A stretch of 64,000 nucleotides of DNA, taken from the NCBI RefSeq assembly GCF_003605475.1, contig NZ_RAHX01000001.1, positions 868,001 to 932,000 on the forward strand. Direction: 5' to 3'. The notes under the pieces were generated by a model. It did not search any database. It was not told the origin of the DNA and saw nothing but the letters and a program-made list of their open reading frames with translations. Below are positions 25,702-57,637 of this stretch, one piece after another; the first letter of the stretch is position 1, and every line of letters begins with the position of its first letter. The position numbers were made by a program, and so were the translations under genes. The stretch comes from Aurantiacibacter aquimixticola. GTDB lineage: Bacteria > Pseudomonadota > Alphaproteobacteria > Sphingomonadales > Sphingomonadaceae.

Positions 25702-25702
25702 C

Positions 25703-28207: not shown

Positions 28208-28284
28208 GGCAGTTCGGGAAAGCACCTGACAAAGATCAAGAAATGTTGGATGGTGCCCGCAAGAGCGGTGGAGGGCTCGGCACT

Positions 28285-29055: not shown

Positions 29056-29083
29056 TCGGTCGGCACGAAAACGAACCTTTTTC

Positions 29084-29113
29084 GCAAGCTAGACCTTCGT
29101 CCTAGCTTTTTGC
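29084..29113 (+). terminator. Hairpin terminator between the two Crp/Fnr genes
   Basis: AAGCTAG (29086-29092) pairs with CTAGCTT (29102-29108) around a 9-base loop, and the downstream arm continues into a T-run (CTTTTT). It lies 30 bases after the first regulator gene and is absent after the second. Confidence 0.7.
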
Positions 29114-29201
29114 GGATCGCTCAAATTTCCTCGTTGAAAACGGCTTTTCAGCTAACATCCGTCAATTTTTTGGCACGTGGCCGTTTACTAATTCTCGTCG
29201 C

Positions 29202-29975: not shown

Positions 29976-30331
29976 GAAACCTTTTTGTCGTTCAGCCTCC
30001 TTCAACACACGCCGGGCGATATCGTGGAGATCCACATCGGGGTGTTCCCGACCGTGTATGATTGGACTTGCTCGATGTGGAAGCCGCGATGATCGCTTCT
30101 AGAAACGTTCCCTGCGCGATTGCGGCCTTTCTAAACATTTTATGAGAAGTCATTTTTTCGACCGTACGTGTGAGGGTGACAGCTTTCGCCACGTTGAAAT
30201 CCTGTCACAGTATCGCTAATCCCATTCACGACAGCGGGCCACGGCGATCCTTGGCTCGGAATGGGACCGCAATAACAAAAGCAATGATTAAGAATTCGGT
30301 CCGCTTTGCAGCCCGATATTGGGAAAGCGTC
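29976..30331. other. Intergenic region before the polysaccharide locus
   Basis: This 356-bp spacer separates the second Crp/Fnr gene from the first polysaccharide gene. It is more A/T-rich than the DNA to its left and marks the start of the compositional change. It should hold the promoter of the dehydratase gene, but I see no -35/-10 pair or regulator site I can defend. No gene of convincing quality is present. Confidence 0.5.
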
Positions 30332-32218
30332 ATGATGGACGCTTTTCTCAATTTCGCCCAACGTCTCAGTGAGCTGCCGCGCCGCGCCAAGCAGGCAATC
30401 GTCGCTAGCATCGATGTGGTCATGTTGGTCGTGGCGACATGGACGGCATATTCTCTCCGGATGGACGAGTGGTCGCTGACGTCGCCGGCGATCCAAATAA
30501 TGCTGCTGGCCTCGATTATCCTAGCACCGCCTACCTTTTACGCCGCCGGCGTTTATCGCACCATCTTCCGGTTCGCCGGAGTAGGCATGCTGGCGACGCT
30601 GGCCAGAGCATTCATCGTCTATGGCGCACTCACTTTCATTGTCTTCACGCTCATTGGTGTAAAGGGTGTGCCACGCACACTGGGCGTGCTTCAACCAATC
30701 ACTTTTTTCATCCTCGTCGGCGGCGTTCGGATTAGCATCCGCTTCATCATAATTGACGTGCTTCGCCGTGGACGCTTCGACGGCGCATCGCGACGCACTA
30801 TGATCTACGGGGCGGGAATAGCCGGACAGCAGCTGGCGAATGCCCTGAAGATTGAACCCAACACGAAGCTAGTCGGCTTCACCGACGATGACCCACGCCT
30901 CGCAGGCCAACGGCTCGACGGCCTTACTGTGTATAGCAAAGGAAACCTCGCCGAGACAGTCGCGCGACTTGAAATTGAGGACATTTTGCTGGCGATTCCT
31001 TCCGTCGGCCGAAGCCGTCGACGCCAGGTCGTAAGGGAGCTTGCCGGACTCGGCGTAAAGGTTAAGACGCTGCCGCCAGCACGGCACATCATTGATGGCC
31101 AAGTGTCTGTCGACGACATTCGGCCCCTGCAAATCGGTGATCTGCTCGGTCGTGATCCGGTCGCGCCCGATCAAAAGTTGCTGACGCGTACTGTGCTGGA
31201 AAAGACTGTCATGGTCACGGGCGCCGGCGGCTCTATCGGCAGCGAATTGTGCCGCCAAATCTGCCAAATCGGCGCCACCAAGCTTCTTCTCTTCGAAATG
31301 TCGGAATTTTCGCTGTACGCAATCGAGAGAGAACTCAAACTTTCTTCCGCAGCCAAAACATGCGAGATCGTACCATTGCTGGGATCGGTGCGCGATACAG
31401 AGAAATTGGCTGATACCTTCCGAGACCACCGCGTCGACACAGTTTTTCACGCTGCCGCCTACAAGCATGTTCCACTCGTCGAAGCCAACCCCCTGGAAGG
31501 GCTCAGAAACAATATAGTCGGAACTCATCATATAGCGACCGTCGCGGAGGAAGCCGGCGTCTCCGACTTTATCTTAATCTCCACCGATAAGGCAGTGCGG
31601 CCCACGAATGTGATGGGAGCGAGCAAACGCGTGGCCGAGCAAGTGGTCCAGGCGGCCGCTCATCGCAGTCGCGGGACGCGCTTCTCGATGGTCCGCTTTG
31701 GAAACGTGCTTGGTTCGAGTGGTTCCGTGGTTCCCTTATTTGACAAGCAGATTCGTGCCGGGGGGCCCATAACGGTGACGCACCAAGATGTTACTCGCTA
31801 TTTCATGACCATTCCCGAAGCGGCAAATCTTGTCATTCAAGCGGGTGGCATGGCGAAGGGAGGCGAAGTGTTCGTACTAGACATGGGGAAGCCGGTGCGC
31901 ATTGCTGACCTTGCGCGCACTATGATCCAATTGTCTGGTCTGACAGTTCGCAGTGAGAAAAACCCCGATGGCGATATCGAAATTCGGGAGGTAGGATTGC
32001 GTCCGGGCGAGAAGCTTTACGAAGAGCTTTTGATCGGGAACGCGCCATCGAAAACGCGTCACTCGCGGATCATGATGGCCAGTGAGCACTTTCTGGCGTG
32101 GGATGAAATGCGGCCGTTGCTAGAAGATTTAAAGATCTGCCGGGACCCGGCAGAAGCCTTTGTCATGCTGCAGACACTGGTACCCGAATTTGAGCATTGT
32201 CGAGACAATGAAGGCTAA
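30332..32218 (+). CDS. Nucleotide-sugar 4,6-dehydratase, membrane-bound (CapD/WbpM/PglF type)
   Basis: A 628-residue inner-membrane SDR. Four transmembrane helices fill residues 20-140, followed by a CoA_binding_3 Rossmann domain (MIYGAGIAGQQLANALKIEP). The Polysacc_synt_2 catalytic domain follows, with the dinucleotide motif VTGAGGSIGSELCRQI near 295, FHAAAYKHVPLVEANP, and STDKAVRPTNVMGASKR. The MGASK motif replaces YxxxK, as in the WbpM/PglF group. It would convert UDP-GlcNAc to the 4-keto-6-deoxy sugar. The ATG at 30332 is preferred for its GGGAAAG site; 30284 is an alternative. It supplies the C4-reductase at 35497 and, through it, the priming transferase at 34886. Confidence 0.92.
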   Translation: MMDAFLNFAQRLSELPRRAKQAIVASIDVVMLVVATWTAYSLRMDEWSLTSPAIQIMLLASIILAPPTFYAAGVYRTIFRFAGVGMLATLARAFIVYGALTFIVFTLIGVKGVPRTLGVLQPITFFILVGGVRISIRFIIIDVLRRGRFDGASRRTMIYGAGIAGQQLANALKIEPNTKLVGFTDDDPRLAGQRLDGLTVYSKGNLAETVARLEIEDILLAIPSVGRSRRRQVVRELAGLGVKVKTLPPARHIIDGQVSVDDIRPLQIGDLLGRDPVAPDQKLLTRTVLEKTVMVTGAGGSIGSELCRQICQIGATKLLLFEMSEFSLYAIERELKLSSAAKTCEIVPLLGSVRDTEKLADTFRDHRVDTVFHAAAYKHVPLVEANPLEGLRNNIVGTHHIATVAEEAGVSDFILISTDKAVRPTNVMGASKRVAEQVVQAAAHRSRGTRFSMVRFGNVLGSSGSVVPLFDKQIRAGGPITVTHQDVTRYFMTIPEAANLVIQAGGMAKGGEVFVLDMGKPVRIADLARTMIQLSGLTVRSEKNPDGDIEIREVGLRPGEKLYEELLIGNAPSKTRHSRIMMASEHFLAWDEMRPLLEDLKICRDPAEAFVMLQTLVPEFEHCRDNEG

Positions 32219-32266: not shown

Positions 32267-33529
32267 TCATAGCCTCCAGAAAGCGGGATGACGCAGCGCA
32301 TTCTTGAGGTCGGCAGCGACACCGTGCTCGTTAATTAAGTCAAGAAGCCGATCGGCACCCATTTCGAGATATTCGCCATGCGGAACGGCGAGCAAAACCA
32401 GGTCGTAGGTGCGATCCAGCGCATGGTCATCAAGCTCCACGCCGTACTCGCGCATCGCTTCGGCTGGATCGGCGAGTGGATCATGCACCGTTACGTCTAG
32501 GCGATAGGATTTCAATTCAGAAATCAGATCCACCACCTTGCTGTTTCTGAGATCGGGTACGTTTTCCTTGAAAGTCATTCCGAGAACCAGGGCGTTGCGC
32601 GCGTCCTGCCCTGCCGCCTTTGACAATTGCGAAGCAATATAGCCCGGCATCGTGTCGTTCATCGTTCGTCCTGCGAGTATCACTGCCGGATCATGACCGA
32701 CCTCGCGCGCGCGATGGGCAAGGTAATAAGGATCGACACCAATGCAGTGCCCGCCGACTAGACCAGGCGTAAATTCAAGAAAATTCCATTTGGTTTTTGC
32801 GGCATCGAGTACATCCCACACCGATAGGCCCATCATCCCGAAAATGCGTGTCACTTCGTTAATGAAGGCAATATTGATGTCGCGTTGTGCGTTCTCGATA
32901 ACTTTGGCCGCTTCGGCTGCGCGGATGGAAGCAGCTCTGAAAGTGCCGCCACTAGTCACGCAATCATAAAGCCTCGCGACGGCGTCCAGAGTCTCTTCGG
33001 TATCGCCCGAAACGACTTTGGTAATTTTGTCGATAGTGTGTTCGCGATCACCCGGATTAATTCGCTCCGGGCTGTAGCCTACAAAGAAATCCTTTTTCCA
33101 TGCCAAGCCTGACCGTTCGCTCAAAATGGGTGCGCAGATCCGTTCGGTTACGCTCGGATATACTGTGCTTTCAAACACAATTATCGGCTTTTTGCCCGCT
33201 TGCGCAGCATCCTTAAGCAGATCACCGACAGTCTCGCTCGCTTTGCGAACCAGCGAGAGATCAGGATTTTTCGCGTCGTCGATCGGTGTCGGAACAGTAA
33301 CGATATAGAAATCCGCGGGCGGAATCTCAGCAATCGAACTGGTGCAGACGAGCGACGTATCGCGCATCCGTTCATCCTCGATTTCATTTGTCCGATCATA
33401 GCCTCCACGCAGTTCCTCGACACGTGACTGATCAACGTCGAAACCATAGGTTTCAAAGTTCTTCGACAAAGCTACGGCCAGCGGCAGACCAACATACCCT
33501 AAGCCGATCACACAAATCGTTTGTGACAT
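32267..33529 (-). CDS. tviB: UDP-N-acetylhexosamine/UDP-sugar 6-dehydrogenase (TviB/WbpA type)
   Basis: A 420-residue nucleotide-sugar dehydrogenase. GLGYVGLPLAVALSKNF is the NAD-binding site, and GLVGGHCIGVDPYYLAHRA contains the catalytic cysteine near residue 264. FKENVPDLRNSKVVDLI is the UDP-binding C-terminal region. The PYYLA variant and the GYDRTNEI segment match the TviB/WbpA group that oxidises UDP-GlcNAc or UDP-GalNAc to the uronic acid. It converges with the dehydratase gene (48 bp between stops) and is divergent from the next glycosyltransferase. Confidence 0.9.
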   Translation of the reverse strand: MSQTICVIGLGYVGLPLAVALSKNFETYGFDVDQSRVEELRGGYDRTNEIEDERMRDTSLVCTSSIAEIPPADFYIVTVPTPIDDAKNPDLSLVRKASETVGDLLKDAAQAGKKPIIVFESTVYPSVTERICAPILSERSGLAWKKDFFVGYSPERINPGDREHTIDKITKVVSGDTEETLDAVARLYDCVTSGGTFRAASIRAAEAAKVIENAQRDINIAFINEVTRIFGMMGLSVWDVLDAAKTKWNFLEFTPGLVGGHCIGVDPYYLAHRAREVGHDPAVILAGRTMNDTMPGYIASQLSKAAGQDARNALVLGMTFKENVPDLRNSKVVDLISELKSYRLDVTVHDPLADPAEAMREYGVELDDHALDRTYDLVLLAVPHGEYLEMGADRLLDLINEHGVAADLKNALRHPAFWRL

Positions 33530-33709
33530 CACTCATATTTCCGATAAGTTGGAGAAGGCTGCTGGCGGCGGATATATGGTGATGTAGGATCAATCAAGCG
33601 CTGCTCGCTAGACGAGCAGACCTTCCGCTCTGAAGCCACGCCTCTGTTTCGTTCATTCCGATCCTGCGCTACCGACAATGCATTTCTCGAGGGAAACTCG
33701 GCCAATTTG

Positions 33710-34885
33710 ATGTCAAATAACAAAGCCATTGCCGTCGGTCTGCGCCGCAAGTCGCGGATCGCGCTGATTGTGACGGACGCCTATGCGTTTAACACGCTAA
33801 GCCGCGGACAACTCGAATATTTCCGCGATATCGGAATTGATCTCGATCTGTTCTGCTATGGAACTCGCAAGCAGCTTGACTTGCTACGAAGCCGGAATGT
33901 CGGGCGGGTGATCCCTGTCCCCTTCCGCCGACAACCGCACCCAGCGATGGATTTGGTGGCGCTGATCGTCGTGCTTTGGCACCTTCTGCAGCGCCGTTAC
34001 ACATCGGTGGTTTATTCAACACCGAAAGCCATGCTGATCGGCTCGATTGCGGCATTCATGTCTTTCCAGGCTCGAAGGATTTGCTTTGTGCGAGGTCGCG
34101 CTTACGAAACGATGAAGGGACGTATGCGCCGCATATTTCTGCTGATGGACCGCGTCAGCTTCCGGCTTTCTCATGAAGTCATCTTTCTCAGCCGATCGTT
34201 GGCCCAGGCCTACCGCGAAGACGGCGTCGATCTCGGAGAAAGATTCCGGGTACTCGGCCACGGGTCTTCGAATGGCGTTGATCTCGATCGGTTTCGCGTT
34301 CTTGATGAAGGGCAGCGGGCGGCTTTGCGCAAGACAGAAGGTGTGTCAGAAACAGACTTCGTTATCGTGATCGCCGGCCGCATCGTGCCCGACAAGGGCG
34401 TACATGAAGCGCTTGCACTGATCGAGCGGCTGAAGGATCGCTCGGACCTACATTGGTTTTTCATCGGATGGCCCGAGTCGGACGAACTGACAGCGGCGAT
34501 AAAGGCGCTGGCCCATTACCGTGTATCCCACCTCGACCACTCGACGGATCTGCAGAATTGGCTGGGCATGGCCGACTTGTCTTTCTTGCCTAGCCATCGC
34601 GAAGGATTCGGTAATGTCGGCATCGAGGCCGCCGCGTGCGGTATACCAACGCTCGCTTTCGACGTTGTCGGGCTACGCGACAGTGTCGCGGAAGGACAAA
34701 CCGGCACGCTCGTTGAATTTGGAGACCTCGAAGCCTGCGAAGCTTTCATCCGCGCCGCCGCCGCCGATCGAGCCGATTTCGCGTCTCGATATCCGGCAAC
34801 CCGCGAATGGGTTGCGGAGCGATTTGAGAAGGAAACGGTATGGAGACGTTACGCCAACGCATTTCTTGGCGTCGATATAGCATGA
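33710..34885 (+). CDS. Glycosyltransferase, GT4-like
   Basis: A 391-residue GT-B glycosyltransferase. The C-terminal half has the strand VIVIAGRIVPDKGVHEAL near residue 220 and the donor-binding motif SHREGFGNVGIEAAACGIPT near 300, with the E-x7-E pattern of GT4 enzymes. It would add a sugar to the lipid-linked repeat unit on the cytoplasmic face. The start is the ATG at 33710. Its stop abuts, without a spacer, the stop of the convergent sugar transferase gene (34886). Donor and acceptor cannot be inferred. Confidence 0.9.
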   Translation: MSNNKAIAVGLRRKSRIALIVTDAYAFNTLSRGQLEYFRDIGIDLDLFCYGTRKQLDLLRSRNVGRVIPVPFRRQPHPAMDLVALIVVLWHLLQRRYTSVVYSTPKAMLIGSIAAFMSFQARRICFVRGRAYETMKGRMRRIFLLMDRVSFRLSHEVIFLSRSLAQAYREDGVDLGERFRVLGHGSSNGVDLDRFRVLDEGQRAALRKTEGVSETDFVIVIAGRIVPDKGVHEALALIERLKDRSDLHWFFIGWPESDELTAAIKALAHYRVSHLDHSTDLQNWLGMADLSFLPSHREGFGNVGIEAAACGIPTLAFDVVGLRDSVAEGQTGTLVEFGDLEACEAFIRAAAADRADFASRYPATREWVAERFEKETVWRRYANAFLGVDIA

Positions 34886-40370: not shown

Positions 40371-41519
40371 ATGGTTTTCCGTCGCTTTCTCGCTTTTCTG
40401 TTTCTGTCGACAGCCGCGCTGTCTGGCTTGGCGTCGCTGACCGTATCTCGAGGCGACCAGGCGCCCACTATTGCCAGTCTTGGAGAGATCTTCGACGCTA
40501 CCACTAACGCTAGGTCGTTGCGCAAACAGGTAAGCTTGTGGCGAGACGAGGAAGCTGAACGATCACAGACAATCGCGGAGCCCTCCGCGCTCGTCAATTC
40601 GTTGCAGGAGACGATCCTCAATGAGCCGTTGAATGCGCCCGCATTCACGGCGCTCGCGCTCATTATGCAGGAGACCGGCGACTCGCGTTTTCCGGATTTT
40701 ATCGACGCCGCCACGGATGCTTCCCCGCGCACGCCTTCACTGATTGCTCTTCAGCTCGAACGCGCAGCTCAGCGCTCCGACCAGATGGCTGCTTTGAGAT
40801 TGCTAGATCGAGCAATGCGTTTGCGCCCAGCCAGAATGCGCGAATTCATGCCACAATTTGTTGCAAGAATCGCGAACGACCCGGACGCATTTGCGCTGGA
40901 GGAAGGTCTTTTAATGGAGCCTCTCTGGGCGCGGCAATTCCTGAGTCTCGCGGCCGACGAACCAAACTTGCTTCCACGAATCGCCCAAGTGCGTGTGGAA
41001 AATCCGTCTGCTGCTATCAGCAATGAAGCGGTTGACGCCAAGCTCGCGAGGCGGTCCGCCGAAGCGGGAGATTATATGACCGCTTGGCGTATTTTTCGCC
41101 TAAACCGGCAGTCACAGCCCGGCACGCTGCAGTTCGACACTCAATTCATACCTTTCGACTGGTCACTTACCGCGGACGCAGCCCAAACAGCATTGTTGCG
41201 GGAGAAAGGAACGCTTGAGATCGATTTTTTGACGGGCGGAGGAGAAGCGGCTGCGCAGGTTGTACCACTTCGACAAATGCCCTCTCGTTTGACGGCTGAA
41301 ATCCGGCGAGAAGGCGAAGGCGATAACGACATCACGGTGATAGCGGCGTGCGTGTCCGGAGGCGAAGCGGAAACCAGCGTCCTGATTGCGCCCGATGCGA
41401 AGGCGTTGTCGCTCTCCATGCCGCAGCCATGCCGCTTCGCGAGGATCGCCATTTCAACCGAGCGGCGATATTCGACGACTCCTACGGTCGTCACTCTCGA
41501 TAACCTGTCGATCCGGTAA
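40371..41519 (+). CDS. Exported or membrane-anchored protein of unknown function in the polysaccharide locus
   Basis: A 382-residue protein starting with a hydrophobic signal or anchor (RFLAFLFLSTAALSGLASL). The middle part (about 70-230) is helical with TPR-like pairs (ALALIMQETGDSRFPDF, QLERAAQRSDQMAALRLLDRAMRLRP). The C-terminal 120 residues are beta-rich (a possible jelly-roll or carbohydrate-binding module). It starts 7 bases after the wzc stop and is therefore probably co-transcribed. I cannot name a family. Its place directly after the co-polymerase suggests a periplasmic role in polymer assembly or export. Confidence 0.75.
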   Translation: MVFRRFLAFLFLSTAALSGLASLTVSRGDQAPTIASLGEIFDATTNARSLRKQVSLWRDEEAERSQTIAEPSALVNSLQETILNEPLNAPAFTALALIMQETGDSRFPDFIDAATDASPRTPSLIALQLERAAQRSDQMAALRLLDRAMRLRPARMREFMPQFVARIANDPDAFALEEGLLMEPLWARQFLSLAADEPNLLPRIAQVRVENPSAAISNEAVDAKLARRSAEAGDYMTAWRIFRLNRQSQPGTLQFDTQFIPFDWSLTADAAQTALLREKGTLEIDFLTGGGEAAAQVVPLRQMPSRLTAEIRREGEGDNDITVIAACVSGGEAETSVLIAPDAKALSLSMPQPCRFARIAISTERRYSTTPTVVTLDNLSIR

Positions 41520-44389: not shown

Positions 44390-45523
44390 TCACTTCGATG
44401 CGGCGATTTGACGCAGTGTTTGCGCATATTGCCTGGCGATCGCCTCCACGCCAAAGTCTTCTGCACGCTCTTTGCCCGCGGCGGCAAGCCTTTCCAAGAC
44501 TGCACGATCGGCCAGCAAGCTGTCGATTGCGTGTGCGAGACCTGCACTGTCGCGAACCGGGACAAGCTTGCCGTTGACATCGGACGTGATAATTTCGGAG
44601 GGACCGTGCGGACAATCAGTCGCAACGACGGCGGTACCCATCGCCATCGCCTCGACGATTACATTAGCAAACCCTTCCCAGCGAGACGACAGCACGAAAA
44701 GATCGGCGGCGCGCATATGCGCAAGTACATCATTACGGAAGCCTAAAAACTCAATCCGATCCTCAAGCCCTTTAGATCGAACCAAATCGCGTAAACCGTT
44801 TTCATCCTCCCCGGTGCCGAGGACGCGCAATAGGGGCGTTGGCCGTGTCTCCAACATTTGCATCGCCGCGAACATTGTAGGATAGTCTTTCTGTTCGGTA
44901 AGCCTTCCAACAGCAATCAGCACGGCGCGATCATCAGGGCGATCCGGGCGGGTGTCCCTTACGCGCTCCATTTCTCGCGACATTGGCTTACCGCAATTGT
45001 GGATCACATGCAGGAGGTCAGCCGCGTCGGGCACATGACGCGCAATATCATCGGCCACGCCATGGGACAGGGCAATGATCCCATCGACCTTTGGCCAAAG
45101 ACGCGGAACAATTGCGCGTTGCGCCAGCGCGATCGGCGTGCGCCTAGCGAACACCTGAGTACCGAGCGCGTTCTGAATACTCAGCACGATCTTCGGCTTG
45201 TGGGAGGAATGGCGACAAGCGAGAATTGCGGGAATGGTCGTGAGCGTAAGCACCGGACAGACAATATCCGGCTTCAACTCGTCGATCACGCGAGCCAAAG
45301 GCTTGATCGCCGCAGCCAATTTGCGAACGGTCGAACCGCCATCGCCTTCGAATAAAACACGATGCTCGATACCTTCATCAAGCAGCGTCTCATAATCACC
45401 TTGACCACGGATCGTTACAAAAATTGGTTCGATAGTATTTTCGCGCAGCGCGCTCGCCATGCGCACGAAGTGCATTTCCGCGCCGCCGCCACCAAGCACA
45501 TTCAGGAAAAACAGGACACGCAT
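44390..45523 (-). CDS. Glycosyltransferase, GT4-like
   Basis: A 377-residue GT-B enzyme starting at the ATG at 45523 (MRVLFFLNVLGGGGAEMHF), whose Gly-rich N-terminus is typical of GT4 proteins; an ATG 42 bases upstream is less likely. The donor half has RAVLIAVGRLTEQKDYPTMF and SSRWEGFANVIVEAMAMGTA near residue 285. It is the first gene of a GT-wzy-GT minus-strand operon. Specificity is unknown. Confidence 0.91.
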   Translation of the reverse strand: MRVLFFLNVLGGGGAEMHFVRMASALRENTIEPIFVTIRGQGDYETLLDEGIEHRVLFEGDGGSTVRKLAAAIKPLARVIDELKPDIVCPVLTLTTIPAILACRHSSHKPKIVLSIQNALGTQVFARRTPIALAQRAIVPRLWPKVDGIIALSHGVADDIARHVPDAADLLHVIHNCGKPMSREMERVRDTRPDRPDDRAVLIAVGRLTEQKDYPTMFAAMQMLETRPTPLLRVLGTGEDENGLRDLVRSKGLEDRIEFLGFRNDVLAHMRAADLFVLSSRWEGFANVIVEAMAMGTAVVATDCPHGPSEIITSDVNGKLVPVRDSAGLAHAIDSLLADRAVLERLAAAGKERAEDFGVEAIARQYAQTLRQIAASK

Positions 45524-46030
45524 GGATATCTTACCTAGGCATCGCCAATTTCTGCTATCGCGCACTGCATTGTTTGCTCAGACATGAGCAGTGTGTCCGC
45601 GCATCCCTGGTCTCGCCGATCTTGCGATGAAAACGCTTTTCGCTTCACCGAGCATGTCGCCGCGCAACATAAGTGTCGAAGGACATTGATCAAACCCCGA
45701 TGGCCATACCGTCAATCATGACGCGCGCAACCCCTTCGTTAGACAAAGCGCCGTCCACATCGCCCGCGCACTCCCGAAATGGGTGGGCAAAAGACCCGAA
45801 ACCTCTCTCTAGACTGCGGTCCATGTGAGATCCGCACGGATCAGCATGAACGAGCAGGGAGTACGATATCCAGCCGCCAGCGTAATCCTTCGACCGGCTA
45901 TTTATCTCAGCAGGTCAAATGGGTATGAGCGCGCTGTCGGCCCTTGCCGGCTCCGGCCAATGGCCGGCTTCGCTAAATATCGATCGCGGGCCCAGCCTTG
46001 CGATTGCAACGCATCGAGCCTCCAAATCCC
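45524..46030. other. Divergent intergenic region of 507 bp
   Basis: This region separates the minus-strand GT-wzy-GT operon from the plus-strand murA-like operon and must hold promoters for both. Open frames here are short and overlap one another without good ribosome-binding sites. A partial G/C-rich inverted pair (GCCGGC at about 45938 and 45961) lies near the murA-like gene. I see no repeat or RNA that I can defend. Confidence 0.5.
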
Positions 46031-47332
46031 ATGTCCGATCAAATTCTTATCGCCGAAGACACCGATCACTTGAGTGTGACTATGGACGGTCGCCCTTGCA
46101 CCGGGCGCATTGAACTGGCGGGCGCAAAGAACAGCGCGCTTCGCCTGCTCGCGGCGACTTTGCTGACCAGTGAGCCGGTGCGGCTGACGAACTATCCGTC
46201 ACAGCTTCTCGACGCTAAAATCCATGTTGGCATGCTTGAGCGGCTCGGCAAAAGCCCGAGCCTTGAAGGTGAAGATGCAATTGTCATCACAGAGGCTAAA
46301 ACTCCCCCAGCTCAGCTTGAATGGCCAGGCCGGTCGATCCGCAACACGCTCTTGATCCTAGGCTGCCTGCTGACTCGTATGGGCGAAGGACGCGTACCGC
46401 TTCCCGGAGGCTGCAAGCTGGGCGAGCGCAAGTACGATATCCACGTCGGTATCTTCGAGAAGCTCGGCGCTCGCGTCTGGGAAGAAGGTGACGATCTATG
46501 CGCAAAGACCGATGAGAGGCTTGTGGGAGCCGATATCCACCTGCCGATCCGATCCACTGGCGCTACCGAGAATGCAATCCTGTGCGGGACGCTTGCCAAA
46601 GGCGTGACACGGGTATGGAATCCCCATGTCCGCCCGGAAATTCTCGATCTGGTGGGCATGCTGCGCTCGATGGGTGCGAAGATTGAGGTATTCGGGCAAG
46701 AACATATTCGTATCGATGGCGTTGAAACGCTAAGTGGGTGCGACCACCGCGTAATTCCCGACAATATGGAAGCAATCACGTGGCTGGTCGCCGCGGTAAT
46801 CACCGGCGGCGATGTCGAGATTGCGGACTTCCCCTACGCCGACCTGGAAGTCGTGCTCGCGCATCTGACAGCTGCTGGTGCTCGACTTTTCCGGAGCGAA
46901 AACTCTCTGATCGTGCGCGGAGGACGTCCCTACCCACTCGAAATCAGCACCGGCCCCCACCCGGGCATCAATTCGGACGTACAACCGATCCTTGCCGCTT
47001 GGGCAGCTGCGGCCCTTGGTGAATCGCGCATCGTCGATCTGCGCTTTCCAGGCCGTTATGCCTATGCAGCCGAGATGCAGAAGCTTGGTGTGCAATATGC
47101 GGTCGAAGGTGATTTGCTCACAATCAATGGTGCAGGCATCGCTTTGAAGGGAGGCCGAACGAAGGCTCTCGATCTGCGTGCGGGGGCAGCATTGGCTCTT
47201 TGTGGCCTGATCGCGAAAGGCACCACGACGATTGAAGACGCTTGGCAGATAGGCCGTGGGTACGTCAATTTTGGTCAAAAGCTGCGGTCTCTCGGTGTCG
47301 AAGTTGAACTCGGGCGTAGCGCGGCTTCATGA
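46031..47332 (+). CDS. MurA-like enolpyruvyl transferase (UDP-GlcNAc 1-carboxyvinyltransferase family) in the polysaccharide locus
   Basis: A 433-residue EPSP-synthase-fold enzyme. The MurA catalytic residues are visible: Lys in LAGAKNSALRLLAA, the loop cysteine in PGGCKLGERKYDIH (about residue 128), the Arg after it, Asp in VIPDNMEAITWLVA, and Arg in DLRAGAALALCG. GATENAILCG is also conserved. The reaction would add enolpyruvate from PEP to the 3-OH of UDP-GlcNAc or a related UDP-sugar. The ATG at 46031 is chosen over 45998. Its stop overlaps the murB-like start (ATGA). It is diverged (for example RSTGATEN instead of SVGATEN) and lies among polysaccharide genes, so it is probably a specialised paralogue. 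Confidence 0.88.
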   Translation: MSDQILIAEDTDHLSVTMDGRPCTGRIELAGAKNSALRLLAATLLTSEPVRLTNYPSQLLDAKIHVGMLERLGKSPSLEGEDAIVITEAKTPPAQLEWPGRSIRNTLLILGCLLTRMGEGRVPLPGGCKLGERKYDIHVGIFEKLGARVWEEGDDLCAKTDERLVGADIHLPIRSTGATENAILCGTLAKGVTRVWNPHVRPEILDLVGMLRSMGAKIEVFGQEHIRIDGVETLSGCDHRVIPDNMEAITWLVAAVITGGDVEIADFPYADLEVVLAHLTAAGARLFRSENSLIVRGGRPYPLEISTGPHPGINSDVQPILAAWAAAALGESRIVDLRFPGRYAYAAEMQKLGVQYAVEGDLLTINGAGIALKGGRTKALDLRAGAALALCGLIAKGTTTIEDAWQIGRGYVNFGQKLRSLGVEVELGRSAAS

Positions 47333-48321
47333 TAAGATTCGATGACGGTGTCATCAGGCAGGTCGAACGCATCTGCCCTTCAGGTGTGATGCGAAATTTT
47401 GATTTTGCGTCACGTTCGTGGTGGCGCATCGGCGGCACCGCGCCTCTGGCAGCGCGCCCGCGCACAAGAAGCGATATTGTAGCGCTGCGCAGATTTTCTC
47501 AAAATGTGGATCTACCCACACTTGTGATTGGCGAGATGAGCAACCTCCTGTTTGCCGACGAGCGCGTCGACGCGCTCGTTTTGCAGCTAGGCGCAGAATT
47601 CTCGCGACCAACGCTTGTGGACGCCACAACCGTCCGGATTGAAGCAGGGGCTTGGGTGCCCGGTGTAGCGCGGTTCCTGCAACAACACGGCATGTCCGGA
47701 CTCGAACATATCTGCGGAATCCCCGGCACGCTTGGCGGGCTTGTGATGATGAATGGTGGCAGCCTGCGCCGATCCATTGGTGAGCATGTGGTCACGGTTA
47801 CAAGCGTCGATGCAAATGGCGACACGATTGAGCGCACGCGCGATGAGTGCGATTTCGCTTATCGGCATTCCGTCTTCGCCGATCTCGATGAAGTCATCGT
47901 GGACGTGACGCTGCGCTTGGAAAAGGGCGACCCGGTTAGAATGCGACAGACGATGCGCGACATCCTCCGCTCTCGGAGGCTGAAATTTCCGCGAAAACTT
48001 CCAAATTGCGGATCGGTGTTCAAGAGCAATCCTGCATGCTACGCGGAATTCGGCCCTCCCGGTGCGATGATCGAGCGAGCCGGATGGAAAGGGATGATCC
48101 GTGGGGGGGCGCAGGTCTCGCCGCTGCACGCAAACTTCATCGTGAACCGCGGCGGCGCGCAGGCCGTCGACGTCCTTTCGCTGATTGGCGACATTCGTCA
48201 GTCGGTCCACGATCAAACCGGCCACCTGCTCGAGCCGGAGATACGCTATGTCGACAATGACGGTAAAGTGTGGACTGCCGACGAAGCGCACAGCCGTTTC
48301 ATTGCAAACGCATCAGGATGA
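47329..48321 (+). CDS. MurB-like enolpyruvyl-sugar reductase in the polysaccharide locus
   Basis: A 330-residue FAD enzyme of the MurB family. The N-terminal FAD domain has WWRIGGTAPLAARP and LEHICGIPGTLGGLVMMNGG. The catalytic part has FAYRHSVFAD (Tyr/Arg), NCGSVFKSNP with the proton-donating serine, and LEPEIRYV with the C-terminal glutamate. The usual GxGSN FAD loop reads GEMSN, a mild deviation. It would reduce the enolpyruvyl group to a lactyl ether with NADPH. It overlaps the murA-like gene before it and the glycosyltransferase after it (ATGA at both junctions). Confidence 0.88.
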   Translation: MIRFDDGVIRQVERICPSGVMRNFDFASRSWWRIGGTAPLAARPRTRSDIVALRRFSQNVDLPTLVIGEMSNLLFADERVDALVLQLGAEFSRPTLVDATTVRIEAGAWVPGVARFLQQHGMSGLEHICGIPGTLGGLVMMNGGSLRRSIGEHVVTVTSVDANGDTIERTRDECDFAYRHSVFADLDEVIVDVTLRLEKGDPVRMRQTMRDILRSRRLKFPRKLPNCGSVFKSNPACYAEFGPPGAMIERAGWKGMIRGGAQVSPLHANFIVNRGGAQAVDVLSLIGDIRQSVHDQTGHLLEPEIRYVDNDGKVWTADEAHSRFIANASG

Positions 48322-49439
48322 CGCAGCACGATAGACCAAAAACCGCAATCGTGGTGGCAACTGAAAGTTTGTCGGGCGCACAAAATCGCGCAATTAAGAT
48401 CTACCGCGCTCTGAAGAACGACGGTTATCCTGTCGAACTCTGGCTGAACCCTGCGCTAAAGCGGCTAATAGCCGCCGATTATCCAGCCGAGGCCGACGAT
48501 GCGATTGAATATCGTGCGGGCGGACCGATCCATCGGCTGCTCCGGCCATTACAGCGGTCCAAACGGCTGTGGGCGATGCTCGAAAACTCGGGCCTGCCTG
48601 CGCTTGTCGGTGAACCGAGGTTCGAACGTCTCGCCACGCAACGCGGCATTGAGCTCGCCCATATTTTTCTCGATTTACAAATCGGCCACGTGCGCAATCT
48701 GCCCACGATCTTTGAACTCACTAGTCCCGACATCGCAGACACGATGGGAAGCCAACCGCTTGCTCGCCGCCGTTCGCACACACTCTATCATGCCGTAAGC
48801 CCAAGCGTCGCCAGGCGCTTTTCGGCACTCAGTCCAAACACGTCAATGGTTGAAGCAAACGGCCCATTCTTTTCACGTCGTGTCGAGCCGATCACAGTCA
48901 TCAAGGAAAACACGGTGGTGTTCGCGCACCGCTTCATTCCGAGAAAGAACGCCGTTCTCTTCGCGCGAGTTGCACGGCGTTTCGTCGACAGGCGTCCGGA
49001 CTGGCGCGTGCAGATCCTCGGACGGGGTAGCATGGAGGAGGAAGTCCGCTCCGCTATTAAGGGTGTCGCTGATAAAGTCGAAGTGGCTTTTACTTCAGAT
49101 CTGGCAGCCGCCTTGTCGCAAAGCCGCGTTTTCGTGAGTCTGATACAGCCGGACAATTACCCATCGCAATCAGTCCTGGAAGCGATGTCGCTTGGCAACG
49201 CACTGCTGCTGTCTGACACTGGCGATAGTGTTTCGAAGTTTCTCGGCGGAAATGGTGTGGCGACCGATCTGAATGAGGATGCCATCCTGCACAATCTGCT
49301 CGAACTGGTTTCCGACGAGGCCGAGCTTGACCGAATGGCGGATCGCTCACGCGAATTGGTCGACGAGCGGTTTTCAGCGCGCGCCTATCTAGACCATCTC
49401 AGATCGCTTTACGCTACAACGGTGGAAATTGGCAGCTGA
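48318..49439 (+). CDS. Glycosyltransferase, GT4-like, coupled to the murA/murB-like pair
   Basis: A 373-residue GT-B enzyme. The N-terminus [20 protein letters not shown] is the Gly/Ala-rich acceptor loop. The donor half has [19 protein letters not shown] near residue 200 and [20 protein letters not shown] near 290, the GT4-type Glu motif. The ATG at 48318 overlaps the murB-like stop, giving a tightly coupled three-gene unit, so it is the best candidate to transfer the sugar that the pair makes. Specificity is inferred from position only. Confidence 0.88.
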
Positions 49440-50501: not shown

Positions 50502-50623
50502 ACCTAAAGCTCAGAGTGTTCGCCCCTCGTTCCGGTCACACGGCATCACTTTCCACAGTCAATTTCATCTCGCCCCACTTTTCGGTTGTGACACCTCATG
50601 AATGGGTCTACCGAGGTGAAGCT

Positions 50624-51427
50624 ATGACTGATTCCACCCCTTCGACCTTTAGCTTGTCGGCCAGCGAAATTTCGCATTGGCGGGAGGAGTGCGCCGAGAT
50701 TGATCGCAAGATTGAGCAGCTTCGCAAGAAGAAGGGCGACATAGAGGAGCGGCTTTCGGCTGCGCAGTTGCTGGCTCCTTCGCTTTTCGTGGCCTCAGAA
50801 CCTGAGAAGGGCAAGGGACGCGGGCAGGCTAAGATGCGCAAGGGCCTTATGACTTGGCCCCATATTATCGAAGAGGCCGTGAGGAATTCAGAAACCGGTC
50901 TTCGGCAGCGCGACTTGCTCGAAAGCATCCGTAGTGGTCGGCACGGAAAGCGTCTGACTGAAAGTGAATCCGCCTACTATAATGCGATCCAGAAGGTGCT
51001 GAAGCGCAAGATCGTCATCAAGAGAGGTGAATGGCTTTTCACACCTGCGCAGCACGATGAATACCTGAGAAAGGTTGACGCTGGCGAGGTCAAGGATGTG
51101 GCCGAAGTCGAAGAATACGGCTCGCCAAGTGCAGCCGAGGCTGTGCGATTTGTGACCGCATCGCCCGGTAGGAAGTCAATCGATGTAATCAAGCATATCT
51201 GGGCAACACAGGACGCCGACAAAAAGCAGCGCCAAAGCAAGACGAGCCTCTACAACGTGCTCGCACGTTTGGTTGAGCAGCAAAAGTTGTCGAAAGATGA
51301 TGAGGGGCTTTTTTACCCCTTCAACGAGAATGAGGCCCCGTCGGACGAACCGACCGGGGCCTCAGAAACCGGGGAAGTTGCAGCTTCCTCATCCGATACT
51401 TCACCGCTCTTTCGAGTGGTGAAGTGA
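50624..51427 (+). CDS. Element-borne protein with predicted winged-helix repeats, unknown function
   Basis: A 267-residue acidic-tailed protein. Residues 10-45 are a coiled coil (EISHWREECAEIDRKIEQLR). Two helical segments of winged-helix appearance follow: LMTWPHIIEEAVRNSETGLR with KVLKRKIVIKRGEWLF, and KSIDVIKHIWATQDADKKQR with VLARLVEQQKLSKDDEGLFY. The C-terminal 40 residues are Glu/Ser-rich and low in complexity. The ATG at 50624 follows GAGGTGAAGC. It lies wholly within the transposable element, upstream of the other passengers. A role in regulating transposition or the target is possible but unproven. Confidence 0.72.
   Translation: MTDSTPSTFSLSASEISHWREECAEIDRKIEQLRKKKGDIEERLSAAQLLAPSLFVASEPEKGKGRGQAKMRKGLMTWPHIIEEAVRNSETGLRQRDLLESIRSGRHGKRLTESESAYYNAIQKVLKRKIVIKRGEWLFTPAQHDEYLRKVDAGEVKDVAEVEEYGSPSAAEAVRFVTASPGRKSIDVIKHIWATQDADKKQRQSKTSLYNVLARLVEQQKLSKDDEGLFYPFNENEAPSDEPTGASETGEVAASSSDTSPLFRVVK
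51332..51363 (+). repeat. Perfect-armed inverted repeat within the passenger gene
   Basis: GAGGCCCCGTCGG and CCGACCGGGGCCTC pair, with one bulged C, around an ACGAA loop inside the coding sequence near its 3' end. No T-run follows. It may act as a folded mRNA element or be a transposon-internal site. Confidence 0.65.
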
Positions 51428-51635: not shown

Positions 51636-51827
51636 ATGACCAAGCTTTCTCTAGCGGACGCGCTCGCGTCCAACCGATTAGACGAGTTCGTTGCACAAGC
51701 CGAGGCCGATGGCGTCGGTCCCGCCGATCGCGCTCAATTCGAAGTCCTAGTAGGGACGCTCACAGCGCCCCAACCAGAAGGTCAAACATCCCGTTCACGC
51801 GGTGGCGGTTCGAAGCGCGGAAAGTGA
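51636..51827 (+). CDS. 63-residue protein overlapping the transposase gene antisense
   Basis: A small hydrophilic protein (MTKLSLADALASNRLDEFVA at its N-terminus) with a predicted acidic helix and a Gly/Arg/Lys-rich tail (SRSRGGGSKRGK). The ATG at 51636 follows GGGAAGAGCG. Its last 68 bases overlap the 3' end of the transposase gene on the other strand. It lies inside the transposable element. The function is unknown; an association with regulation of transposase translation is only a guess. Confidence 0.6.
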   Translation: MTKLSLADALASNRLDEFVAQAEADGVGPADRAQFEVLVGTLTAPQPEGQTSRSRGGGSKRGK

Positions 51828-52671
51828 ATTCGTCCAGATAGCGCTGCATGTGCTTTCCGCTGATCTGCACGTGCGTTGACCGCACCGAAGCCTTGAACAG
51901 CTTCCAGAAGCCCTCAACCGTGTTGACGTGGAAGTTCTCGCCACGCTGATAGTCATACCACACATATTCCTTGCGACCGTGCTTCACAGCGCCGTGCGAG
52001 TAGCCATCGAAGGTCAGTAAATTGTAGCTGTAGAGTTCGTCCGTCGAGACGGTAGCGCCCGCCTCCACGTTTTGCAGCACCACATCGCGCAGCGTGTTTT
52101 TCTTCACATCGGGAATGACTACAGCGCGCATACGGCCTTCGCGCTCCGCAAGGCCCATGACAATCGTTTTGCCGGGAGCGCCGCGACCGCGCTTGCCATC
52201 AGAGCGGCGACCGCCGACGTAGGCCTCGTCCAGCTCGATGTGGCCAGTCAGGAGCGCGTCAAAGCCCTGCGCCTTGCTCATAAGATCGCGGATTTGCTGG
52301 CCGATGCGATAGGCAGTCTTATAGGTCACGCCAAGCTGGCGTTGCAGTTCCTTGCCGCTCACACCGTGGCGCGTCGTGCAGAACAGATAGATTGCATAGA
52401 ACCACGAAACGAGCGGTGTGCGAGTGTTCTCTAGGATGGTGCCAGCGGTGGGGTTCACATGGTGGCCGCAAGAAGCGCAAACGTAGGTGCGGCGCTTTTG
52501 CAGCTTGTGGAACGTGCTTTCGACGGTGCCGCATTTCGGGCAGTCAAAGCGGGTGCCGCCGAAACGAACGGCCATGATGTGCTCAAGGCAAGCGTCTTCA
52601 TCGGGGAAGCGCTGGAAGAACTCGCGGACACTGAAATCAGGGGAGGCAGATGGGCTTTTCGTCATGACCAT
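51760..52671 (-). CDS. IS1595-family (ISXO2-like) transposase
   Basis: A 303-residue transposase. An N-terminal zinc ribbon has CPKCG and CASCG. The DDE-type catalytic core has HIELDEAYVGGRRSDGKRGR, VSTDELYSYN, and HVNTVEGFWKLFKASVR, supplying the Asp, Asp and Asn/Glu residues of the IS1595 group. It encodes cut-and-paste or copying movement of the surrounding element. The start at 52671 (ATG) is likely; 52665 and 52683 are alternatives. It appears complete and potentially active. Confidence 0.93.
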   Translation of the reverse strand: MVMTKSPSASPDFSVREFFQRFPDEDACLEHIMAVRFGGTRFDCPKCGTVESTFHKLQKRRTYVCASCGHHVNPTAGTILENTRTPLVSWFYAIYLFCTTRHGVSGKELQRQLGVTYKTAYRIGQQIRDLMSKAQGFDALLTGHIELDEAYVGGRRSDGKRGRGAPGKTIVMGLAEREGRMRAVVIPDVKKNTLRDVVLQNVEAGATVSTDELYSYNLLTFDGYSHGAVKHGRKEYVWYDYQRGENFHVNTVEGFWKLFKASVRSTHVQISGKHMQRYLDEFTFRASNRHRVNGMFDLLVGAL

Positions 52672-52689
52672 TATATAGCGCACTCACCA

Positions 52690-56332: not shown

Positions 56333-57637
56333 TCAAGACGCGCTCGCCGCGCGTCGTTGCGTGTGGACGTTGAGCCGATGCAGAACAGTCACCACACTCA
56401 CCGACTGCAGCAGGAACATCGCACAGGAATAGGCCAGCACGGTATCGTAGAGATCGAAACCAATTTCCGGCAGCGCGATGAAGATTGCGCATATGATAGT
56501 AAGGCGTGAGCCGTTAATCACTAGCAACAGCCATTGCTCGCGCAGCAGATCGAGCAGCCGCATGATCGGAGACGCGACGAGCCCAGAGAAGAGGTAGACT
56601 GACAGCAATTCGCTTATGCGCCCCGCTGCTGCCCAGCGGTCTCCAAACAAGATCACAGCCACTTCTTCGCCCAGCAGCATCAGTGCCAGCGCAAATGGCG
56701 CGCCTGTAAGTGCAAGGCGCTTGATCGTATGCCGGGTAATCTCGCGGATCTCGGCCACTCGCTTCAAGCCCATTGCGGCGACTTCTCCGTAAAACGCCTG
56801 GCTCAATCCGCGCACGAGGAATGTCATCGGCACGGCGACGAGTGTGAGAGCAAGACCGAACTGACCTGCCGTCGCCGCATCGTATCGCGCCGCGATGAAC
56901 AGCACCGGTGACTGTATAGCTGCCGCAAGCAATATCTGAGCGGGCAAGCGATACAGCGCGAAAGAACTGTAGAGCTTTGCTGCCTTGCCTATGCGCAACT
57001 GCCCTACACGCCTGAATTCGGCGGTATAGCGCATTGCCAAAGTGCCCAATCCGCCGCCGATAGCCAGAATCTGACCGAGCAATAGGCCAATCGGACCGGC
57101 CGCCAAAAAGCCCATTCCCACCTTTACGACAGCGCTCGACAGCGATTGCTGCACGGAAGTCCTGGCGATGAGCTTGAAGTCTTTCTTGCGCGTCCCCCAT
57201 GATGACAACGTTTCATAAGATGCCGAAGCCATGATTCCCACCGCAACGAGCCACCAATATGGTATTAGCGCCTCCATCGAGAAATGAGGCAAAAGCACCG
57301 GAGCGGCCAAGTAAAGCGTCACGGCAGCTAACGCGCCGATGACCGAGATGAGTCCGAAGCAAAGAGCGACCAGGCTGACGGCCATTCGACTGCTGCGGGG
57401 AAGCGGTATCGCCACGGGAAAACGCAATGCCATGAATGGGCCGACCAGCATCACGAGGGCGGTGTAGACCGACAAGACGCCAAAATCCGCCGGATCATAG
57501 ATCCGGGTTAGGATGGGTATCGCGATTAGCCCGATAATACGTCCGAAAACCAAGCCACCGGTCAGGGTCGCCATTCCGCGGAAGACATCTCCGGACGCAC
57601 CGGAAAAGGCGCGCTCACCAATTTTCCCCCAGTTCAT
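56333..57637 (-). CDS. wzx: Polysaccharide flippase (Wzx, MOP superfamily)
   Basis: A 434-residue inner-membrane protein with about twelve to fourteen helices spread evenly over its length. The N-terminal IIGLIAIPILTRIYDPADFG is the standard Wzx/MATE-like opening, followed by LSVYTALVMLVGPFMALRFP. It would flip lipid-linked repeat units from the cytoplasmic to the periplasmic leaflet. It is the first gene of a wzx, ATP-grasp, acetyltransferase, beta-helix minus-strand series. It would cooperate with the Wzy-like proteins and the Wzc-type protein. Confidence 0.88.
   Translation of the reverse strand: MNWGKIGERAFSGASGDVFRGMATLTGGLVFGRIIGLIAIPILTRIYDPADFGVLSVYTALVMLVGPFMALRFPVAIPLPRSSRMAVSLVALCFGLISVIGALAAVTLYLAAPVLLPHFSMEALIPYWWLVAVGIMASASYETLSSWGTRKKDFKLIARTSVQQSLSSAVVKVGMGFLAAGPIGLLLGQILAIGGGLGTLAMRYTAEFRRVGQLRIGKAAKLYSSFALYRLPAQILLAAAIQSPVLFIAARYDAATAGQFGLALTLVAVPMTFLVRGLSQAFYGEVAAMGLKRVAEIREITRHTIKRLALTGAPFALALMLLGEEVAVILFGDRWAAAGRISELLSVYLFSGLVASPIMRLLDLLREQWLLLVINGSRLTIICAIFIALPEIGFDLYDTVLAYSCAMFLLQSVSVVTVLHRLNVHTQRRAASAS

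What the first reader, a model, noticed from the sequence alone, without database searches (positions are those of the whole stretch)
46031..49439. Coupled murA-like / murB-like / glycosyltransferase unit inside a polysaccharide locus
The murA-like and murB-like genes keep their catalytic residues (PGGC loop cysteine, IPD aspartate; NCGS serine, LEPE glutamate). They overlap each other and a GT4 glycosyltransferase by ATGA at both junctions. Housekeeping murA and murB are not normally placed with Wzx/Wzy genes. Inference: this unit makes a UDP-sugar with a 3-O-lactyl ether (UDP-MurNAc or an analogue), and the coupled transferase adds it to the repeat unit, giving a muramic-acid-type exopolysaccharide. 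A simple duplication for peptidoglycan supply is the main alternative.
Basis: partly seen in the sequence, partly recalled or inferred. Interest (0 to 1): 0.78.

Follow-up and report, generated by a model that had tools for sequence, protein, structure and literature searches.

The report
Muramic-acid-like sugar genes for surface polysaccharides
Among its capsule-type genes this bacterium carries extra, specialised versions of the two enzymes that normally make the cell-wall sugar muramic acid; the same specialised pair is scattered over many bacteria and a few archaea that have no peptidoglycan, probably to build an unusual lactic-acid-bearing sugar into surface coats.

Summary
Confirmed. murA-like (46031-47332), murB-like (47329-48321) and a GT4 glycosyltransferase (48318-49439) overlap by ATGA at both junctions inside a Wzx/Wzy-type locus. 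They are not the housekeeping genes: the genome has another, divergent MurA and a dcw murB.

The window MurA belongs to one clade (56 of 56 rows, SH-aLRT 100) spread patchily over at least seven bacterial phyla and Methanosarcina; none of 30 congeners searched shows it. Next to it stand MurB (34 of 36 loci with 5 kb flanks) and Wzx (27 of 36). In Methanosarcina spelaei, whose genus makes no peptidoglycan (recalled), it is the only MurA; in a relative (L183) it lies in one run with MurB, a hexapeptide acyltransferase, Wzx, two epimerases and a UDP-sugar dehydrogenase.

All catalytic residues checked are kept, but the acceptor pocket is rebuilt with the same changes throughout the clade, including two new arginines (V161R, I/V327R; 56 of 56 and 240 of 240). 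So the pair very likely makes a UDP-3-O-(R)-lactyl sugar for polysaccharide. Whether that is UDP-MurNAc or, as the pocket hints, another sugar such as a UDP-uronate is open. No chemistry was tested. My searches of the held literature found no description of this clade.

The parts
46031..47332 (+). MurA-like enolpyruvyl transferase of the polysaccharide-type clade ('pMurA'); an in-frame TTG start at 45998 is also possible
   Evidence: PF00275 233.3 bits; NF006873 367.7 (cut-off 297, met); TIGR01072 349.7 (cut-off 392.7, not met); clade in tree
47329..48321 (+). MurB-like enolpyruvyl reductase ('pMurB'), ATGA overlap with murA
   Evidence: MurB_C 99.7 bits, FAD_binding_4 63.5; NF010480 262.6 (cut-off 259, met); TIGR00179 192.4 (cut-off 144.5, met); clade of 35
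48318..49439 (+). GT4 glycosyltransferase, ATGA overlap with murB; candidate transferase of the lactyl sugar
   Evidence: Glyco_trans_1_4 46.7 bits; murB-GT overlap also in L042 and L040, 54-56% identity
49519..50493 (+). NAD-dependent NDP-sugar epimerase/decarboxylase-like (UDP-xylose-synthase-like by recall)
   Evidence: PF16363 167.6 bits; 80-81% identical homologue in the same clusters of G148 and G009
30170..32218 (+). CapD/WbpM-like UDP-GlcNAc 4,6-dehydratase
   Evidence: PF02719 407.7 bits; PseB model 191.1, below its cut-off
32267..33532 (-). UDP-N-acetylhexosamine 6-dehydrogenase (TviB-like)
   Evidence: TIGR03026 368 bits (cut-off 189.8, met); TviB model 406.2, below its cut-off of 592
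33707..34885 (+). GT4 glycosyltransferase
   Evidence: PF00534 89 bits
34886..35446 (-). initiating sugar-phosphate transferase (Bac_transf)
   Evidence: PF02397 188.7 bits
35497..36420 (-). NAD-dependent epimerase/reductase
   Evidence: PF01370 96.3 bits
36579..37994 (+). Wzy_C / O-antigen ligase-like protein
   Evidence: PF04932 50 bits
38229..40364 (+). Wzc-like chain-length tyrosine autokinase
   Evidence: TIGR01007 143 bits (cut-off 108.05, met)
40371..41519 (+). unknown protein, kept in the two relative clusters
   Evidence: 40-44% identity in L042 and L040
41542..42798 (-). GT4 glycosyltransferase
   Evidence: PF13692 93.1 bits
42795..44615 (-). Wzy-type polymerase candidate
   Evidence: TIGR04370 30.2 bits, below cut-off 40; 46-58% homologues in the relative clusters
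44390..45565 (-). GT4 glycosyltransferase
   Evidence: PF00534 129.3 bits
53519..54649 (-). right-handed beta-helix / pectate-lyase-like protein
   Evidence: PF12708 46.8 bits; 68% homologue in L041
54731..55234 (-). hexapeptide acyltransferase of the type that often stands next to this MurA elsewhere
   Evidence: PF00132 47.8 bits; homologue within 5 kb of pMurA in 21 of 36 loci; in the window itself it is 7.4 kb away
56333..57637 (-). Wzx flippase
   Evidence: PF13440 75.2 bits
57946..58944 (+). NDP-sugar C4-epimerase (TviC/GalE-like)
   Evidence: PF01370 173.4 bits; TviC model 132.7, below its cut-off
51760..52683 (-). IS1595-type transposase inside the locus (hint of mobility)
   Evidence: PF12762 140.9 bits

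Best explanation
The three overlapping genes are a portable cassette for a lactyl-ether sugar in a surface polysaccharide. The MurA-type enzyme moves the enolpyruvyl group of PEP onto a hydroxyl, presumably O-3, of a UDP-sugar. The MurB-type flavoenzyme reduces it to a (R)-lactyl ether. A coupled glycosyltransferase then adds the sugar to an undecaprenyl-linked repeat unit that Wzx flips and a Wzy-type polymerase joins. The MurA belongs to a separate clade ('pMurA') that kept the MurA chemistry but rebuilt the acceptor pocket. Shown here: gene content, coupling, clade, distribution, residue changes. Inferred: the reaction, the product, the role of the GT, the polymer.
For: Separate housekeeping copies: the own genome has AroA, this MurA and one divergent MurA, plus a dcw murB. 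In 30 carrier genomes (of the 50 loci), 29 of 29 bacteria also have a housekeeping-type MurA that falls outside the clade. Single clade: 56 of 56 rows, SH-aLRT 100, branch 1.66, phyla mixed. Context: of 36 loci with at least 5 kb on both sides, within 5 kb: MurB 34, Wzx 27, epimerase 22, hexapeptide transferase 21, UDP-sugar dehydrogenase 16, GT 16, Wzc 11 (some loci are near kin). Archaea: pMurA in 5 of 199 genomes of the class of M. spelaei, itself included, one of them M. barkeri Wiesmoor by name and contig length; M. spelaei has only AroA plus pMurA, and one MurB; L183 has Wzx, hexapeptide, MurB, MurA, two epimerases and a dehydrogenase in one run. Minimal plasmid cassettes: hexapeptide-pMurA-pMurB-GT2 in Qingshengfaniella, pMurA-pMurB-GT2-Wzx in Rhizobium gallicum. 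Catalysis kept: K22, N23, R91, C115, R120, D305, R331, D369, R397 in 56 of 56 and 240 of 240. Chemical precedents: N-acetylmuramic acid in a Vibrio vulnificus capsule (PMC7247339, passages) and 3-O-[(R)-1-carboxyethyl]-D-glucuronic acid in Alteromonas EPS (PMC9229347 and PMC9605250, passages).
Against: No enzyme or polymer was assayed, and no polymer of known structure was tied to a pMurA gene here. 3 of 29 carrier bacteria show only one MurB, not beside pMurA (two of the three pMurAs lie within 2 kb of a contig end), so the pair may not be obligatory. In Qingshengfaniella no Wzx/Wzy is annotated near the cassette. 2 of 36 well-flanked loci lack a nearby MurB and 9 of 36 lack a Wzx match within 5 kb.
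Confidence: 0.83

Rival explanations
1. The acceptor is ordinary UDP-GlcNAc and the product ordinary UDP-MurNAc, used as a monosaccharide of the polymer (a muramic-acid polysaccharide in the strict sense). This is a narrower form of the best explanation, not its opposite.
For: Fold is MurA (up to TM 0.96 by target, rmsd 1.6). Partner MurBs come from at least two MurB lineages, and 4 of 48 group near housekeeping ones; 3 of 29 bacteria show only one MurB, which is easiest if the intermediate is the ordinary one. N-acetylmuramic acid is reported in a V. vulnificus capsule (PMC7247339, passages).
Against: Positions that are mostly conserved in 54 housekeeping MurAs are changed and nearly fixed in the clade: A92N, V161R, V163T, A185P, A186H, T304S, I/V327R in 56 of 56 and 240 of 240; E188R in 54 and 240; R232N in 54 and 235. 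Several are at or next to residues that contact UDP-GlcNAc (docking table, PMC11628175, passages). A dedicated UDP-GlcNAc enzyme has no evident need of this.
Confidence: 0.42
2. Extra peptidoglycan-precursor supply (a MurZ-like second copy), or a fosfomycin-bypass copy.
For: Firmicutes carry two MurAs (recalled). The own housekeeping MurA is divergent (26% identity).
Against: Found in Methanosarcina, which has no peptidoglycan (recalled); M. spelaei has no other MurA. The fosfomycin-binding cysteine is kept in 56 of 56. NF009470 (MurZ by recall) 295.7 bits against a cut-off of 552. Not seen in 30 congeners searched (6 of them under 90% complete), where by score a divergent MurA is the one MurA (one 70%-complete genome shows a further match). 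Genomic place is in polysaccharide loci.
Confidence: 0.06
3. The enolpyruvyl group itself, unreduced, or a reduced group that is further amidated, is the final decoration.
For: Some loci have no second MurB. An asparagine-synthase-like gene follows pMurB in Photobacterium, and a V. vulnificus capsule has an amide-linked serine (PMC7247339, passages).
Against: MurB is within 5 kb in 34 of 36 loci; MurB catalytic Ser and Glu are kept in 35 of 35 and 34 of 35 main-clade rows (one gap). The Asn-synthase type was found in 1 of 36 loci.
Confidence: 0.08

Closest known systems
MurA (UDP-GlcNAc enolpyruvyl transferase, TIGR01072)
   Same: Same fold and the same PEP/catalytic residues; 31-37% identity to five housekeeping MurAs aligned with it
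   Different: Separate clade; fails the TIGR01072 cut-off in 6 of 6 tested members, while 5 of 5 housekeeping controls from other genomes pass; acceptor pocket rebuilt; found in polysaccharide loci and in archaea
MurB (UDP-MurNAc dehydrogenase, TIGR00179/NF010480)
   Same: Passes both cut-offs; catalytic Ser and Glu and the YR arginine kept
   Different: Main partner clade of 35 apart from the housekeeping MurBs (100/99); a second partner lineage of 9, mostly from Bacteroidota
NikO (nikkomycin enolpyruvyl transferase, acts on UMP)
   Same: Precedent that the MurA family can change its acceptor (PMC6801904, passages)
   Different: 25% identity, farther in fold than MurA; no nucleoside-antibiotic genes noticed here
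Muramic-acid capsule of Vibrio vulnificus ATCC 27562
   Same: A capsule polysaccharide with N-acetylmuramic acid, from a locus with wza-wzb-wzc and wecA genes (PMC7247339, passages)
3-O-[(R)-1-carboxyethyl]-D-glucuronic acid EPS of vent Alteromonas (strains 1644 and HYD657)
   Same: A 3-O-lactyl ether on a polysaccharide sugar, the bond a MurA/MurB pair would make (passages; the (R) form is stated for strain 1644)
   Different: The sugar is glucuronic acid, not GlcNAc; its genes were not found in my searches

Membership tests
MurA equivalog (TIGR01072) | score at or above 392.7 bits | tested here: not met
   Window 349.7; five other clade members 367.6-382.3; five housekeeping MurAs 443.7-598.8. 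The own genome's divergent MurA also fails, at 316.6, so the cut-off alone does not mark the clade
MurA equivalog (TIGR01072) | PEP-site/catalytic residues K22, N23, R91, C115, R120, D305, R331, R397 | tested here: met
   56 of 56, 240 of 240; which residues count as PEP site is partly recalled
MurA equivalog (TIGR01072) | UDP-GlcNAc-site residues as in housekeeping MurA (A92, V161, V163, A185, A186, E188, R232, T304, V/I327) | tested here: not met
   All changed, in 54-56 of 56 and 235-240 of 240; roles in UDP-GlcNAc binding partly from a docking table for 1UAE (PMC11628175, passages), partly recalled
MurA equivalog (TIGR01072) | turns UDP-GlcNAc + PEP into enolpyruvyl-UDP-GlcNAc | not testable with these tools
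   needs an enzyme assay
MurA fold | two-domain MurA structure | tested here: met
   AlphaFold2 pLDDT 93.1; the first 43 PDB rows are MurAs, 30-36% identity
Firmicutes MurZ/second MurA (NF009470, identity with MurZ recalled) | score at or above 552 bits | tested here: not met
   295.7. No Firmicutes MurZ was put in the tree
MurB (TIGR00179, NF010480) | scores above 144.5 and 259 | tested here: met
   192.4 and 262.6
MurB (TIGR00179, NF010480) | catalytic Ser, Arg, Glu | tested here: met
   S229 35/35, R179 35/35, E304 34/35 in the main clade; the roles are recalled and from PMC12844806 (passage, Arg159 and Glu325 in E. coli)
Wzx/Wzy-dependent polysaccharide locus | flippase, chain-length kinase, initiating transferase, several GTs | tested here: met
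Wzx/Wzy-dependent polysaccharide locus | a polymerase | tested here: inconclusive
   Wzy_C protein above cut-off; TIGR04370 candidate below cut-off
Lactyl-ether polysaccharide producers | lactyl sugar in the polymer | not testable with these tools
   needs NMR/MS

The most novel reading that the evidence does not exclude
pMurA is an enolpyruvyl transferase with a new acceptor: not UDP-GlcNAc but a UDP-uronate or other modified UDP-sugar, its carboxylate perhaps held by the invariant new Arg327. With pMurB it makes a UDP-3-O-(R)-lactyl-uronate, the missing genetic basis of lactyl-glucuronic-acid-type polysaccharides. The module has moved between bacterial phyla and into Methanosarcina, which would give an archaeon without peptidoglycan a muramic-acid-like sugar in its coat.
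Probability: 0.38. Interest if true: 0.82.

Novelty: new variant of a known kind. Interest (0 to 1): 0.7.

Why it matters
Lactyl-ether sugars in capsules and exopolysaccharides are known chemically, but I found no paper in the held library that names the genes. This clade gives a sequence signature (N92, R161, T163, P185-H186, R188, R327) by which such polymers could be predicted, and a two-enzyme test. It also shows that MurA/MurB homologues in a genome, an archaeal one included, need not mean peptidoglycan. Where databases name these proteins they call them 'UDP-N-acetylglucosamine 1-carboxyvinyltransferase', so cell-wall surveys would miscount them. A clade with a changed acceptor would be a second case, after NikO, of MurA changing substrate.

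Tried and rejected
Rejected: 'only murA/murB of the genome'; 'recent duplication of the housekeeping gene' (26% identity to the own second MurA; separate clade); 'MurZ'; 'contaminant contig' for the archaeal cases (four of the five lie on contigs of 4.5-4.9 Mb; M. spelaei's is 29 kb). A sixth hit in that class (G659, 37% identity, 9 kb contig) groups with housekeeping MurA and was not counted as pMurA.

Wzx clusters without pMurA as a background rate for UDP-sugar dehydrogenase neighbours: only 2 of 59 genomes matched, one the own, so I have no control for the dehydrogenase/epimerase neighbours and do not use them as proof of a uronate acceptor. Prevalence: pMurA in 4 of 198 other family genomes, 2 of 395 other order genomes and 0 of 396 other phylum genomes; the samples overlap and lean to near kin, so these are not phylum-wide rates. 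Literature searches for the gene pair, the sugars or the archaeal case; listings only, except the papers cited, of which I saw passages. Searches for MurA contact residues.
Full report
WHAT IS THERE. They sit in a Wzx/Wzy-type locus of about 29 kb (30170-58944) with an initiating transferase, Wzc, Wzx, a Wzy_C protein, a weak polymerase candidate, three further GT4 enzymes, a TviB-like UDP-sugar dehydrogenase, epimerases, a hexapeptide acyltransferase, a beta-helix protein and an IS1595 transposase.

NOT THE HOUSEKEEPING COPIES. The genome (2.55 Mb, 100% complete) has three PF00275 proteins: AroA (L001), the window protein, and L003 1453-2751, a divergent MurA (26% identity to the window protein; NF006873 334.4 bits, cut-off 297). 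It has two MurB_C proteins: the window one and L004 1489-2448, which lies between a MurC-like and a Ddl-like ORF, the dcw order (MurC and Ddl named from sequence by eye). In 30 congeners searched with PF00275 (24 at least 90% complete) no match has the window type's score. Of the 24, 23 have two matches, by score AroA and the divergent MurA, and one shows the divergent MurA alone; one 70%-complete genome has a further match of unknown type. At a strict E-value the window MurA itself found none of the 13 congeners sampled. So the window MurA is dispensable in the genus and most simply a gain.

ONE CLADE, MANY PHYLA. Relatives at 57-80% identity occur patchily: 4 of 198 other genomes of the family, 2 of 395 others of the order, 0 of 396 others in a phylum sample. 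A scan of GTDB species genomes gave 50 loci, in Pseudomonadota, Bacteroidota, Balneolota, Verrucomicrobiota, Thermodesulfobacteriota, Actinomycetota (Microbacterium), a cyanobacterium, a Bacillota MAG and Methanosarcina spelaei; several are MAGs. In a tree of 128 rows all 56 window-type MurAs form one clade (SH-aLRT 100, branch 1.66); the 54 housekeeping MurAs are outside it (quick method; several AroA rows, the own divergent MurA and one housekeeping row are long branches, and the deepest MurA forks are open). I call the clade pMurA, to avoid confusion with 'MurA2' of Firmicutes. It fails the MurA equivalog cut-off in 6 of 6 tested members, while 5 of 5 housekeeping controls pass; the own divergent MurA fails too.

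CONTEXT. Of 59 pMurA loci tabulated, 36 have at least 5 kb on both sides (not all independent: five Methanosarcina-type loci and three from the window's family are near kin). Within 5 kb of pMurA: MurB 34 (26 within 100 bases), Wzx 27, epimerase 22, hexapeptide transferase 21, UDP-sugar dehydrogenase 16, GT 16 (only homologues of four window GTs were counted), Wzc 11. In 30 carrier genomes taken from the 50 loci, 29 of 29 bacteria also have a housekeeping-type MurA; 26 of 29 have at least two MurBs, 3 have one (two of those three pMurAs lie within 2 kb of a contig end). Partner MurBs fall in a main clade of 35 (100/99), a second clade of 9 (100/97) and 4 rows near housekeeping ones, so pMurA is single in origin while its reductase seems to have been recruited more than once. 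On a Qingshengfaniella plasmid the module stands alone as hexapeptide transferase, pMurA, pMurB, GT2; on a Rhizobium gallicum plasmid it is pMurA, pMurB, GT2, Wzx; 7 of 72,556 plasmid records have the clade.

ARCHAEA. 5 of 199 genomes of the class of Methanosarcina spelaei, itself included, have pMurA at 62-64% identity. Four lie on contigs of 4.5-4.9 Mb; one of these is M. barkeri Wiesmoor by matching name and contig length. M. spelaei has AroA and pMurA only, and one MurB, beside pMurA; the control M. acetivorans has no MurB_C match. Methanosarcina has no peptidoglycan (recalled), so there the pair must serve something else.

POCKET. In E. coli numbering (from a 419-residue Photobacterium MurA minus one), K22, N23, R91, C115, R120, D231, D305, R331, D369, R371 and R397 are invariant in 56 of 56 pMurAs. 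Changed: A92N, V161R, V163T, A185P, A186H, T304S, T326L, I/V327R in 56 of 56; E188R and R232N in 54; N330G in 53; Y393W in 55. In 240 further proteins N92, R161, T163, P185, H186, R188, S304, L326, R327, G330 and W393 are found in 240 of 240 and N232 in 235 (these are the top 120 hits of two searches, so near relatives by selection). R91, R120, K160, V163, E188 and R232 are listed as UDP-GlcNAc contacts in one docking table (PMC11628175, passages); S162-G164 are called the diphosphate region (PMC8698320, passages). The model has the MurA fold (pLDDT 93.1; the first 43 PDB rows are MurAs). My reading: PEP chemistry kept, acceptor changed or differently held.

WHAT IT DOES. Best reading: UDP-sugar + PEP to enolpyruvyl-UDP-sugar (pMurA), reduced to a 3-O-(R)-lactyl ether (pMurB), transferred by the coupled GT to a Wzx/Wzy repeat unit. 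Strict UDP-MurNAc is possible, and it is favoured by the interchangeable MurBs. A UDP-uronate is favoured by the new arginines and by known 3-O-(1-carboxyethyl)-D-glucuronic acid in Alteromonas EPS, the (R) form stated for strain 1644 (PMC9229347, PMC9605250, passages). N-acetylmuramic acid is known from a V. vulnificus capsule (PMC7247339, passages). I could tie neither polymer to a pMurA gene. Dehydrogenase and epimerase neighbours are common but I have no control rate.

NOVELTY. Lactyl sugars in polysaccharides and acceptor change in the MurA family (NikO; PMC6801904, passages) are known; a dedicated cross-phylum MurA clade for polysaccharides was not found in my eight searches of the held library, which lacks most subscription journals. 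Hence 'new variant of a known kind'.

Noticed in passing
L003 1453-2751 (own genome C1:810739-811974): The only other MurA of the genome, and by score the one MurA of its near-complete congeners, is very divergent (26% to the window protein, 316.6 bits against the TIGR01072 cut-off of 392.7); in my alignment it lacks the first residues of the PGGC loop and the equivalents of R331 and D369. Several other genera of the family gave similarly weak best MurA matches.
   Followed up: partly
L078 12324-14102: An asparagine-synthase-like gene directly follows pMurB in Photobacterium; it could amidate the lactyl carboxylate, as in the serine-amide capsule reported for V. vulnificus.
   Followed up: no
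L202 13392-17193: On a Qingshengfaniella plasmid the module is a lone four-gene cassette among catabolic and transport genes, with no Wzx/Wzy annotated in the 29 kb shown.
   Followed up: partly
genome of L060 (Marinobacter segnicrescens, G506): Two PF00275 matches at pMurA-like scores on two contigs (one should be the L060 copy) and three MurB_C matches: possibly two pMurA modules in one genome.
   Followed up: no
window 24871-28207: Ku and LigD (with phosphoesterase, ligase and primase-polymerase domains) side by side, a two-gene bacterial NHEJ system, followed by two Crp-type regulators at 28171-29975.
   Followed up: no
window 53519-54649: A pectate-lyase-like beta-helix protein inside the polysaccharide locus, kept at 68% in a relative's cluster: a candidate lyase for the polymer itself.
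   Followed up: no
window 50516-51427: A 303-residue ORF without a Pfam match between the cassette and the IS1595 transposase.
   Followed up: no
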